NCBI RefSeq assembly: GCF_900115705.1
Contig: NZ_FOXL01000002.1
Location: 124,001 to 188,000, forward strand
Reading direction: 5' to 3'
DNA: 64,000 nucleotides
DNA from: Frateuria terrea
GTDB taxonomy: Bacteria > Pseudomonadota > Gammaproteobacteria > Xanthomonadales > Rhodanobacteraceae
The notes beneath the pieces are model-generated. The model saw only the letters and a program-made list of their open reading frames with translations, did not search any database and was not told the DNA's origin. The position numbers and the translations under genes are program-made. Below, in pieces: positions 12,600 through 16,034 of this stretch; within the stretch, counting starts at the first letter, position 1; each line of letters starts with the position of its first letter.

Positions 12600-13607
12600 C
12601 TACCTCCGGTCCAACGGACTCATGACTCCCCGTCCGCCCCGATTGAGCACATGCGTGTAGATCTGCGTGGTCGACACGTCGGCATGGCCCAGCAGCTCCT
12701 GGATCGTACGCAGGTCATACCCGTCTTCGAGCAAGTGCGTGGCAAACGAGTGCCGCAACGTGTGGCAGGTAGCCGGCTTTGCCAGCCCTGCCCGCACGCG
12801 CGCCTGCTTGACCGCCCGCTGCAGCCGCGACTCGTCCAGGTGGTGGCGCCGTTCCTGCCCTTCGCGCGGATCGCAACTGCGCGCCGATGCCGGGAACACG
12901 TATTGCCATCCCCATTCGGCATCGGCGTGCGGAAACTTGCGCGCCAGCGCATCCGGCAGCCACACCCGCCCGAACCCCGCGTCCAGGTCGCGCCGATGAA
13001 TCCGCCGGGCCTCCTCCACCTGCGCCTGCAACGGCGCCGCCAGCGCGCCCGGCAGCATCGTGCGGCGATCCTTGCCGCCCTTGCCCTGCCTCACAACCAA
13101 CTCGCCCTTGCCGAAGTCGACGTCCTTCACGCGCAGGCGCACGCACTCCATCAGCCGCAGACCCGCGCCATAGAGCAGGCTCGCCATCAGCCATGGCGTT
13201 CCCGTCAGCTCACCCAGCAGCGCGGCGACTTCCGGCCGGGTCAGCACCACCGGCAACCGTTGCGGCTTCTTCGCCCGCTCGATCCCATCCAGCCAGGGCA
13301 ACTCGATCCCGAGCACCTGCTTGTAGAGAAACAGCAAAGCCGACAAAGCCTGGTTCTGTGTGGACGCCGACACGCTGCCATCTACCGCCAAGCCCGTAAG
13401 AAACCGCTCGATTTCCGGCGCCCCCATTTCCGTCGGATGCCGTTTGTCGTTGGCCAGAATGAACCGCCGGACCCAACCGACATACGCCTCTTCCGTCCTG
13501 CGAGCCAAGCCCAGCCGCCGGACCCGCTGCCGAACCTGGTCCAGCAAACGTGGAGGCTGTACGGGCACCAAGCTTGCAGCGCCATCTACCCCGTGAAAGG
13601 ATGCCAA
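12600..13607 (-). CDS. intI: Integron integrase (IntI-type tyrosine recombinase)
   Basis: IntI captures and excises gene cassettes by recombining attI with folded single-stranded attC. The catalytic set is complete: Arg151 ([10 protein letters not shown]), Lys176/Lys179 (GKGGKDR), His282 and Arg285 ([13 protein letters not shown]), His308 (LLGHADV) and Tyr317 (IYTHV). The diagnostic IntI-only insertion is present at about 214-245 ([20 protein letters not shown]), which separates it from XerC/D. It faces away from attI and the cassettes, the classic integron layout. The 5' end lacks an ATG: TTG at 13607 or GTG/TTG near codon 13 are candidates. I saw no obvious LexA box upstream. It looks functional. 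Confidence 0.95.
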
Positions 13608-13733: not shown

Positions 13734-13797
13734 TGCGCGATTACATCCCAATTTGAAACCTACTTTAAGTTATACCGCGCAAGCACAGGGAAGAATC

Positions 13798-14184
13798 ATG
13801 CAAAAGCTAGCCTATTCACTGCTATCCCTGTTTGCCGTAGTTGCGGCTGCACAGAGCTCTCCGGCGGGCGCCAAGGAGATGAGAGCCGGCGATCTTCAAC
13901 AGATCTGTAGCAGTTCAAACCGGGACGTCGATGCGCCATGTAGGTACTACATCATGGGCATTGTTCAGGGCATCAATATCGGGCTGAGCATGGCCGACGG
14001 CAAAGTCGCATCGGGGAGGCCGTGCATTCCCGACGATGTGCAAGATTCAAAGTTTGAAATGCTCGTAAAGGCAAAGCTGGGCGCAGACTTAATGGTCAAT
14101 CCCGGAGATAAAGAGCTGCCTGCCTCTAGTCTCGTAGGCGCCGTCATTGCCACGACTTTCCCGTGCAACAAAGCTCGGCAATAG
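13798..14184 (+). CDS. Cassette 1: secreted Rap1a/Tai-like immunity protein candidate
   Basis: A 128-residue protein with a clear Sec signal peptide (MQKLAYSLLSLFAVVAAAQSSPAGA). The mature domain has four spaced cysteines (QQICSS, DAPCRYYI, GRPCIP, FPCNK) and the pattern C..YIMG.VQG, which resembles the Rap1a/Tai family of type VI secretion immunity proteins (established family trait; the match here is by eye). It is the first cassette of the integron. Base composition is visibly more AT-rich than the neighbouring core genes. A good Shine-Dalgarno (AGGGAAG) precedes the ATG. No T6SS effector is seen nearby, so its role is open. Confidence 0.75.
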   Translation: MQKLAYSLLSLFAVVAAAQSSPAGAKEMRAGDLQQICSSSNRDVDAPCRYYIMGIVQGINIGLSMADGKVASGRPCIPDDVQDSKFEMLVKAKLGADLMVNPGDKELPASSLVGAVIATTFPCNKARQ

Positions 14185-14194
14185 GGTGGGCGCG

Positions 14195-14251
14195 GTATAA
14201 CATTTCGTTCAAGGCGGACGGCTTCGCCGCCGCTTAACTCCAGCGTTAGAT
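14195..14251 (+). other. attC site 1 (complete)
   Basis: A 57-bp cassette recombination site. The left core GTATAAC (14195-14201) deviates at one base from RYYYAAC. The right core GTTAGAT (14245-14251) fits GTTRRRY. Between them, GTTCAAGGCGG and CCGCCGCTTAAC form the imperfect hairpin arms with a central TTCG. It lies 11 nt after the cassette 1 stop codon. Confidence 0.9.
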
Positions 14252-14261
14252 CGCACCAAAC

Positions 14262-14471
14262 ATGACTGAGAAATTGTTTGAGGACTACGGCATTACTCTG
14301 TTCAGGCGGAGCGACAAGTTCTTTGTCCGTTACGATGCCGGGCATCTCGTCGTGCAAATGCGCGAAGATGAGGTCACGGAAGAACAGGCGGTGCAGCTAC
14401 AGCAAGACGAGCAGTCGGCCTATCACGTTCTTTTGGAAGTCGAGCGCTCACGTGGCAGCCATGCGACCTAA
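14262..14471 (+). CDS. Cassette 2: 69-residue protein of unknown function
   Basis: This small acidic soluble protein begins 11 nt after the attC1 core. It has no signal peptide, membrane segment or cysteine. A central acidic helix (REDEVTEEQAVQLQQDEQSAYHVLLEVE) suggests an alpha-helical domain. No Shine-Dalgarno is visible, as is common for cassette genes. The TAA stop lies inside the left core (ACCTAAC) of the second attC. I do not recognise the family. Confidence 0.7.
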   Translation: MTEKLFEDYGITLFRRSDKFFVRYDAGHLVVQMREDEVTEEQAVQLQQDEQSAYHVLLEVERSRGSHAT

Positions 14472-14477
14472 CCATTC
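14466..14477 (+). other. Left fragment of attC site 2, interrupted by an IS
   Basis: ACCTAAC (14466-14472) fits the RYYYAAC consensus exactly and is followed by CATTC, after which the insertion element begins. The other half of the site is at 15986-16034. Confidence 0.85.
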
Positions 14478-14594
14478 CGTAAGAGACTTCCGATCAACCC
14501 CGGGCGCATGACGCTTTTGCCCCAGGCATTCGAGCCACTGCCCATCATCGTGTTGTCCTCCGGTGATACGTGTTGCAAGTCGATGCTGCGCGGT

Positions 14595-14770
14595 TGCAAC
14601 GGATGCCAGACTGCATTTCCGTAAACGGTCTTGTGGAGTCGATGCCGCCGACTCGGACCAGGGTATAAACCGCACCCGGCGACCTCATTCATTCATCGGA
14701 CTGACCGGCGTGCGGGGATCGGCCGCAGCGCGGAATGGACGTCCAAATGGTTAGTCAGGCTCTCGCCGGG
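14595..14770 (-). ncRNA. Predicted guide RNA (bridge RNA/seekRNA) of the IS1111-type element
   Basis: This lies in the non-coding end downstream of the transposase, where IS1111-type elements encode their guide RNA (family knowledge). On the RNA strand the segment from 14754 to 14740 reads CUAACCAU then UUGGACG. The first 8 nt can pair with the bottom strand of the left attC flank, and the next 7 nt with the top strand of the right flank. This segment lies in a hairpin closed by CTGAC/GTCAG (14701-14706 with 14754-14759). A second small hairpin at 14608-14631 contains UUUACGGA, resembling the element's own ends (donor guide). Exact RNA ends are unknown. Confidence 0.75.
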
Positions 14771-14821
14771 GTGGTCTGACCCGTTGTCTACCGCATCGCA
14801 CTGACGCGAATCGAATCCTTC

Positions 14822-15901
14822 TCAAGCGGCTTGCACCGTGTTCGTCTGGTGATGCCTCGGGTGCTGCAGGCACGCGTGCGGGTCGTAGTCGACGTCGCGC
14901 GCCAGCATCGCCCACGCCTGCCGCGCATGCTTGTTGGCGATCGCCACCAGCACCTTGCCGAACGGCATCCGCCGATCCAGCATGCGTATCCACAACTGCT
15001 CCGGTGTGGCCTGCTCGGTTGCTGCCGCCTTGGCCCGCTGCAGGCTGCTGCGCGCGCCCTGGATCAGCAGCGTGCGCAGGTAGGCGTCGCCACGGCAGCT
15101 GATCGTGCCCAGGCGTGCTCGCCCACCCGTGGAGTGCTGCATCGGCACCAGACCGAGCCAGGCGGCCCAGCTGCCGGCCATTGCAAAGTCGGTTGCGGAG
15201 CCCAGCGTCGCCACCACCGCGTCGGCGGCGATTGGCCCGATACCCACCATCGAGCGCAGCCGGATGCAGCGCGCATCCTGTCGCGCGTGGGCGTCGATGT
15301 GGGCATCGCACGCGTCGAGGCGCGCGCGCACTTGCGCCCAGTGGGCGGCCAGGTCGCGCAGCAGCTCGCGCAACTCGCCGGGCAAGCCAGCCTGCGCCTC
15401 CAGGTCGGCCAGCACCCGGCGCAGTGCCACGTCACTGTTGGCCACCACGAGGCCGAACTCGGCCAGCAGGCCACGCAGCCGGTTGCCGATGGCCAGGCTC
15501 TCGGCCTTGTAGCCCTCGCGCACCCGGTGCCAGGCCAGCCGCGCCTGCTGCTCCACCGACTTCACCGGCACGAAGCGCATGTTGCCCTGCCGGGTGGCGG
15601 TGGCGATCGCCTCGGCGTCGTTGCGGTCGTTCTTGGTCGTGCGGCTCTTGCGGAACGGGCCGACGAACTGCGCGGCGATCAACCTCGGCTGCAGCCCGAG
15701 TGCAACACAGCGACGCGCCCAGTGGTGCGCTCCGCTGCACGCCTCCATCGCCACCACGGTGCCGGCCGGCTGCTGGCCAAGCCACGCGGCAAAGGCTTCG
15801 CGCTTCAACTCCTGCCGCCGCAGCACGTGTCCGGCGGCATCCATCTCGCACACCGAAAACACGCGCTTCGCCAGGTCCATACCCAGGGTTATAGTGCTCA
15901 C
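14822..15901 (-). CDS. IS110-family transposase/recombinase (IS1111 subgroup)
   Basis: A 359-residue RNA-guided recombinase. The N-terminal RuvC-like DEDD domain has Asp9 (GMDLAK), Glu53 (AMEACSG), Asp92 and Asp95 (NDRNDAEAIA). The C-terminal Transposase_20 domain has VGIGPIAADAVVATLG and HSTGGRARLGTISCRGD, which includes the conserved serine region. The start is a GTG at 15901. No frameshift or stop is present, so it looks active. GGAGACTTCC, a third copy of the terminal repeat motif, lies immediately upstream (15902-15911) in inverted orientation to 15968-15977. Confidence 0.95.
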   Translation of the reverse strand: MSTITLGMDLAKRVFSVCEMDAAGHVLRRQELKREAFAAWLGQQPAGTVVAMEACSGAHHWARRCVALGLQPRLIAAQFVGPFRKSRTTKNDRNDAEAIATATRQGNMRFVPVKSVEQQARLAWHRVREGYKAESLAIGNRLRGLLAEFGLVVANSDVALRRVLADLEAQAGLPGELRELLRDLAAHWAQVRARLDACDAHIDAHARQDARCIRLRSMVGIGPIAADAVVATLGSATDFAMAGSWAAWLGLVPMQHSTGGRARLGTISCRGDAYLRTLLIQGARSSLQRAKAAATEQATPEQLWIRMLDRRMPFGKVLVAIANKHARQAWAMLARDVDYDPHACLQHPRHHQTNTVQAA

Positions 15902-15985
15902 GGAGACTTCCTCCTTTGCTGACGGTTGTGTCGAAACACCATCATGGCCCTCGAGGCCGAAAGGGGTGGAAGTCTCCTTTTTACT

Positions 15986-16034
15986 CGTCCAAGCCGACGC
16001 CGCTCCGCGGCGCGACTCAACTCAGGTGTTGAGC
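15986..16034 (+). other. Right fragment of attC site 2
   Basis: The sequence resumes after the IS with CGTCCAAGCCGACGCCG, a central hairpin (GCCGCTCCGCGGC), the matching arm and the right core GTTGAGC (16028-16034), a perfect GTTRRRY. Joined to 14466-14477 it forms an attC of about 60 bp similar in size and layout to attC1. Confidence 0.85.

What the first reader, a model, noticed from the sequence alone, without database searches (positions are those of the whole stretch)
14740..14754. Readable target guide: 15 nt in the IS non-coding end match both flanks of the attC insertion point
Plus-strand 14740-14754 is CGTCCAA followed by ATGGTTAG. CGTCCAA equals the right attC flank at 15986-15992. 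ATGGTTAG is the complement of the left flank CTAACCAT at 14468-14475. As RNA from the transposase strand, one guide half pairs with each target strand, exactly the logic of bridge RNA/seekRNA. The segment sits in a hairpin closed by CTGAC/GTCAG. Two adjacent 7- and 8-nt matches to the very flanks of this insertion are unlikely by chance. The programming of attC targeting can thus be read from the sequence.
Basis: partly seen in the sequence, partly recalled or inferred. Interest (0 to 1): 0.95.

Follow-up and report, generated by a model that had tools for sequence, protein, structure and literature searches.

The report
RNA-guided insertion sequence in an integron

Summary
The 15-nt match is real and correctly placed. 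The element is an IS1111-type IS110 insertion sequence (14478-15986, minus strand) in an integron attC site. Relatives (50 insertions, 38 groups) reveal a ~186-nt structured RNA (14599-14784, minus) with the two loops of a bridge RNA/seekRNA. The TTGGACG half (14740-14746) is not supported: no covariation with targets (p 0.35-0.39), and it lies in a conserved helix. The left-flank guide is ATGAATGA, 14689-14696 (permutation p 5e-5, the floor, uncorrected). Reprogrammed relatives agree: L093 (8 of 8 nt), L127 and L137 (10 nt each); three others gave no significant left match. A donor guide, TTTACGG (14619-14625), equals the element's own right end over 5 nt in 34 of 38 groups, and in 9 of 12 with a changed end. 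The window's own left guide fits its target imperfectly. RNA-guided attC targeting by IS1111 elements is published (PMC11187229), so this is a new member of a known kind, with a corrected guide map and natural donor-guide covariation.

The parts
14478..15986 (-). Insertion sequence, 1509 bp, IS1111 type; insertion TTGGAC|GAATGGTTAG in IS orientation
   Evidence: Ends fixed by comparing flanks and ends of relatives; the position of one or two bases is ambiguous (shared G/GA).
14822..15901 (-). DEDD transposase/recombinase, 359 aa, IS110 family (Transposase_20 + DEDD_Tnp_IS110)
   Evidence: Pfam; NCBIfam NF033542 'IS110 family RNA-guided transposase', 2.8e-88
14599..14784 (-). Structured guide RNA (bridge RNA / long seekRNA) in the non-coding region downstream of the transposase gene
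   Evidence: Alignment A1, 36 sequences: 41 pairs, 98.4% of cells paired, 16 pairs with changes on both sides, 0 of 500 shuffles as high
14746..14754 (-). Right-flank target guide CUAACCAUU, 5' strand of the target-binding loop
   Evidence: Best site of the whole-NCR scan for the right flank, permutation p 3e-4 uncorrected; 3 nt after CTAAC covary, p 1e-4
14689..14696 (-). Left-flank target guide AUGAAUGA, 3' strand of the target-binding loop
   Evidence: Best site of the whole-NCR scan for the left flank, permutation p 5e-5 = floor, uncorrected; L093, L127 and L137 match their own left flanks in this loop
14740..14746 (-).
   Evidence: UGG (14745-14743) pairs with 14699-14697 in 36 of 36 rows; no covariation with the target, p 0.35-0.39
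14661..14669 (-). Possible guide for the element's left end, UUUAUACCC, 5' side of the donor loop (its UUU is paired in the consensus fold)
   Evidence: Resembles the complement of left end GTAAAAA; the scan with the left end found no site here because that end hardly varies
14619..14625 (-). Guide for the element's right end, UUUACGG, 3' side of the donor-binding loop
   Evidence: Permutation p 5e-5; 5-nt identity with the right end in 34 of 38 groups, 9 of 12 with a non-TTACG end
15968..15978 (-). Left subterminal inverted repeat AGGAGACTTCC
14481..14491 (-). Right subterminal inverted repeat GGAAGTCTCTT (reverse complement AAGAGACTTCC)
14465..14477 (+). Left part of the interrupted attC site (R'' side); target right flank in IS orientation
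   Evidence: intact counterparts
15987..16034 (+). Rest of the interrupted attC site (L'' to R'); target left flank in IS orientation
   Evidence: intact counterparts
12600..13607 (-). Integron integrase IntI
   Evidence: TIGR02249 integron integrase, 4.3e-143
14196..14251 (+). Uninterrupted attC of the preceding cassette

Best explanation
The non-coding end encodes a two-loop guide RNA that works with the IS110/IS1111 transposase. In the donor loop, UUUACGG (14625-14619) reads the element's right end and perhaps UUUAUACCC (14669-14661) its left end, so the RNA could bring the closed circle and attC together. Supported by comparison: the fold, both target guides, the right-end guide, attC targeting. 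Inferred: transcription (a junction promoter TTGATC-17-TAAAAA would form only in the circle), binding of the RNA by this protein, the left-end guide, and the recombination steps.
For: Scans of the whole NCR over 50 insertions in 38 groups: best site for the right flank 14754-14745 (p 3e-4), for the left flank 14696-14689 (p 5e-5), for the right end 14625-14619 (p 5e-5); the six best sites of an outer-flank control had p 0.011-0.038. The three sites found this way fall in the two internal loops of a fold obtained without them (16 of 41 pairs with changes on both sides, 0 of 500 shuffles). Natural reprogramming: L093 flank CCGACAGA, guide CCGACAGA; L127 TTTTCAAATG and L137 TACCGCGAAT, 10 nt, shuffle p 0.001 (floor) each, in the 3' part of the same loop. 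Right end and donor guide differ together from the common form on 8 separate tips of the transposase tree. The order of target guides (top-strand complement first) is that reported for IS1111 in PMC11187229.
Against: The p values are not corrected for the roughly 340 positions scanned; runner-up sites reached p 0.004 (left flank) and 0.0016 (right flank). Without the G125 and L093 groups the left-guide test falls to p 0.02. Permutations ignore shared ancestry. The window RNA alone folds only modestly better than shuffles (z -1.71, 13 of 200 at least as stable). Donor-guide misses: L012, L091, L100, L101. Of five diverged elements, the left-flank matches of L041, L125 and L126 were not significant (p 0.22-0.80). 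No RNA data.
Confidence: 0.9

Rival explanations
1. One reading: one continuous 15-nt guide at 14740-14754, with TTGGACG reading the left flank.
For: Perfect 7- and 8-nt match in the window; two 7-nt matches within 10 nt in only 51 of 100,000 Markov copies. A G-T wobble would let UGGACG also pair with the common attC variant TTGAACG (inference).
Against: No covariation with the left flank (p 0.35-0.39); mean fit 3.36 of 6 against 6.18 of 7 for the downstream guide over 36 groups; UGG positions paired in 36 of 36 rows, and one pair of the helix extension is compensated, T-A 13 / C-G 10 / T-G 1 in 24 rows; L093, L127 and L137 follow the downstream guide.
Confidence: 0.05
2. The RNA only recognises the CTAAC half of attC; the protein or DNA structure (folded attC) supplies the rest.
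For: CTAAC is the only near-invariant guide part; the same RNA in G207 sits at four different attC spacers; the G125 copies share mainly GTTAG and C|GA.
Against: The left-flank guide and the 3 nt after CTAAC covary with targets; L127 and L137 lie at sites without the attC left flank, with left guides matching 10 nt.
Confidence: 0.04
3. No guide: the matches are a remnant of attC DNA carried in the element.
For: attC-like words do occur in the NCR (one search lists further 7-nt matches to the right flank).
Against: The two matched segments are in opposite sense, as for pairing with opposite strands; the fold is conserved with compensated pairs; the donor guide changes with the element's end.
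Confidence: 0.01

Closest known systems
IS1111 elements targeting attC with a seekRNA: ISKpn4, ISPst6, ISPa25 (PMC11187229; Tetu and Holmes 2008 and Post and Hall 2009 known to me only as citations)
   Same: Transposase family, non-coding region downstream of the gene, subterminal inverted repeats, attC target, top-strand complement before bottom-strand match in the RNA.
   Different: Different host lineage (a Frateuria-like genome, by inference). Their sequences were not compared here. The parts of the paper that I read (1-4 of 9) describe target matches and no donor guide.
Bridge RNA of IS621 / IS110 (PMC11208160, passages)
   Same: Two internal loops, each with two guides for opposite strands, one loop for target and one for donor.
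   Different: IS110-group RNA lies upstream of the gene, and the guide order of IS1111 is reversed (PMC11187229). PMC11208160 predicts guides by inspecting six elements of both groups and says that in many IS1111 orthologues the donor nucleotides lie in a multi-loop; here it is a simple internal loop, with covariation of the right-end guide.

Membership tests
IS1111 group of IS110-family elements | DEDD transposase with IS110 C-terminal domain | tested here: met
   Pfam PF01548 and PF02371; NF033542
IS1111 group of IS110-family elements | Subterminal inverted repeats of about 11-13 bp, extensions 7 (or 6) and 3 bp (PMC11187229) | tested here: met
   AGGAGACTTCC / AAGAGACTTCC, 10 of 11 identical. 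With ends as drawn the extensions are 8 and 3 in the window, which has one extra G; 7 and 3 in relatives with left end GAGTAAAAAGAGACTTCC
IS1111 group of IS110-family elements | Long non-coding region downstream of the transposase gene | tested here: met
   344 bp, 14478-14821
seekRNA / bridge RNA | RNA segments complementary to both strands of the target, covarying with it | tested here: met
   uncorrected permutation p values, ancestry not modelled
seekRNA / bridge RNA | IS1111 order: top-strand complement 5' of bottom-strand match | tested here: met
   14754-14746 precedes 14696-14689 on the minus strand
bridge RNA | Second loop that reads both donor ends | tested here: inconclusive
   Right end met (34 of 38); left end not decidable because it hardly varies
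seekRNA / bridge RNA | RNA is made and bound by the transposase | not testable with these tools
   No RNA data
IS1111-attC elements | Insertion in attC at a fixed position and orientation | tested here: met
   Window: yes. Relatives: 36 of 50 insertions fit an attC-like left flank and GTTAG-like right flank by pattern; 9 lack the left flank (8 G125 copies, L093), 3 lack the right, 2 have no left flank in the data
IS1111-attC elements | Close kinship with ISKpn4, ISPst6 or ISPa25 | not tested
   None named in the 60 rows listed of at least 5000 plasmid records

The most novel reading that the evidence does not exclude
Both segments act: the helix strand UUGGACG opens when the complex meets an attC of the TTGGACG/TTGAACG type and serves as a second left guide beside the regular one, giving the element a two-register reading of variable cassette sites.
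Probability: 0.05. Interest if true: 0.65.

Novelty: new member of a known kind. Interest (0 to 1): 0.42.

Why it matters
Natural variation in one family shows which bases are guide and which are scaffold, in both the target and the donor loop of IS1111 elements, and gives ready examples of natural retargeting (L093, L127, L137, the G125 copies). It also warns that a perfect match seen in one element can belong to the RNA's own stem.

Tried and rejected
Rfam at gathering thresholds found only a tRNA in the window. A second full copy in the own genome was sought and not found, only a 28-residue fragment match. The class-level search added one diverged relative, L137. Most relatives below 46% identity lack the GGTCAGACC anchor that I searched for and were not analysed. 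Single-sequence folding was not decisive. The scan with the left end gave no useful site (best p 0.02). ISKpn4, ISPst6 and ISPa25 do not appear by name in the 60 rows listed. No structure prediction of the protein was run.

Rows dropped before counts: places with identical flanks, incomplete non-coding regions and those outside 300-460 nt (for example one L024 place and L039) left 51 rows; L035 (same as L103) was dropped, giving 50. L128-L136, fetched later, are not in the counts. Right ends of L025, L014 and L019 were set by hand. Permutation p values were computed only for the six best sites of each scan, and for chosen sites. Alignment A1 holds 36 of 38 group representatives; I left out L019 (near L014) and L101 (26-nt insert in the RNA). 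The tree has 36 of 38 groups; L103 and L107 are not in it. Joint changes were read off the tree by eye; no ancestral states were computed. Of the diverged elements with the RNA anchor, five were tested, with junctions chosen by hand; L124 and L082 were not.

Full report
What is there. The window holds a chromosomal integron: IntI at 12600-13607 minus (TIGR02249), an intact attC at about 14196-14251 and a second attC split by an insertion sequence. The insertion sequence encodes a 359-aa DEDD transposase on the minus strand (14822-15901) and has a 344-nt non-coding region downstream of it. Its ends carry subterminal inverted repeats, and comparison with relatives sets it at 14478-15986. The own genome has one full copy. 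The host genus is probably Frateuria: G094, of the window's genus, carries the same relative with the same flanks as Frateuria flava L004; this is an inference.

The observation. The empty site exists elsewhere in the family, in 5 of 233 genomes at 9 places; of the 8 printed, 7 show a full attC arm and L140 does not. Two 7-nt matches within 10 nt arose in 51 of 100,000 Markov copies of the non-coding region.

The relatives. A protein scan of genome contigs kept 80 loci of 247 relatives; family, order and class searches gave matches at E 1e-80 in 27 of 233, 18 of 398 and 2 of 369 genomes, the own genome included in each. After dropping duplicates and incomplete ends, 50 insertions in 38 groups of non-coding regions were compared. 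By pattern, 36 of 50 have an attC-like left flank and a GTTAG-like right flank; 9 lack the left (8 G125 copies and L093), 3 lack the right, and 2 have no left flank in the data. The 36 are all in one orientation, which the pattern demands; reversed insertions were not searched for separately, and the flanks printed showed me none.

Which bases are guide. I slid each flank along the whole non-coding region and asked where an element's RNA fits its own flank better than the flanks of others. Best for the right flank: 14754-14745, 6.55 of 10 matched, p 3e-4. Best for the left flank: 14696-14689, 6.29 of 8, p 5e-5, the smallest value the test can give. Best for the right end: 14625-14619, p 5e-5. 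The left end hardly varies and gave no useful site. These p values are not corrected for about 340 positions; runner-up sites reached p 0.004 (left flank) and 0.0016 (right flank), and the six best sites of an outer-flank control had p 0.011-0.038. CTAAC hardly varies on either side, and the next 3 nt covary (p 1e-4). Leaving out the G125 and L093 groups weakens the left guide to p 0.02, while the 5 nt after CTAAC stay at p 3e-4. The permutations do not model ancestry.

Natural reprogramming. L093 has left flank CCGACAGA and guide CCGACAGA. Among five diverged elements, L127 and L137 share 10 nt with their left flanks in the corresponding part of the RNA (shuffle p 0.001 each, the floor), while L041, L125 and L126 gave no significant left match (p 0.22-0.80). 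Right-flank matches had p below 0.05 in L126 and L137 only, and right-end matches in L041, L127 and L137 only. The donor guide equals the right end over 5 nt in 34 of 38 groups, and in 9 of 12 with an end other than TTACG; the misses are L012, L091, L100 and, with a TTACG end, L101. On the transposase tree the joint changes lie on 8 separate tips: L083, L122, L094, L096, L023, L111, L033, L123 (by eye).

The fold. The consensus fold of 36 sequences has two internal loops. The target loop has GACUAACCAUU on one side and AUGAAUGAAUG on the other. The donor loop has AUACCCU on one side and GUUUACG on the other; the last G of UUUACGG forms a U-G pair at its edge. Of its cells 98.4% pair, 16 of 41 pairs show changes on both sides, and 0 of 500 shuffles reach this. 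The window sequence alone folds only modestly better than shuffles (z -1.71).

How it probably works. [quoted passage not shown] I read parts 1-4 of 9 and passages). The junction of right and left ends would place TTGATC and TAAAAA 17 nt apart, like the junction promoter described there; this is inference. PMC11208160 (passages only) predicts donor guides for some IS1111 elements by inspection. PMC11208158 names IS1111 only in its references by the passage search. PMC12444791, on Xanthomonas integrons, mentions insertion sequences that target attC only in passing in the passages shown.

Print. My searches for IS1111 with seekRNA, attC and bridge RNA, for IS110 with bridge RNA and covariation, for seekRNA, for ISKpn4, and for IS110 with 'donor-binding loop' (in only part of the hits is listed) showed no title that reports donor-guide covariation in IS1111 elements. 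Most subscription papers are not in that library.

Verdict. The finding is sound in kind and half wrong in detail. The element is a new member of the known RNA-guided IS1111 elements that target attC.

Noticed in passing
L092, L111, L115-L120 (genome G125): Eight copies of one 76%-identical relative sit at sites that share a GTTAG-like right flank (GCTAG in one) and C|GA but lack the attC left flank; its left guide (AAAGACGA) differs too. A lineage that appears to have left attC.
   Followed up: partly
L093 (genome G167): A relative at a CCGACAGA/CTAGC site, with a perfectly matching left guide.
   Followed up: partly
L114 (genome G207, C1 2162142-2169165): Two closely related copies about 2 kb apart in sites with the same attC left flank and different spacers.
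   Followed up: no
L138, L139 (own genome, C12 about 102800-103717): The own genome has two further intact attC sites on another contig, so unoccupied possible targets remain.
   Followed up: no
window 13753-14184: First cassette encodes a Rap1a-like immunity protein (Pfam PF18602).
   Followed up: no
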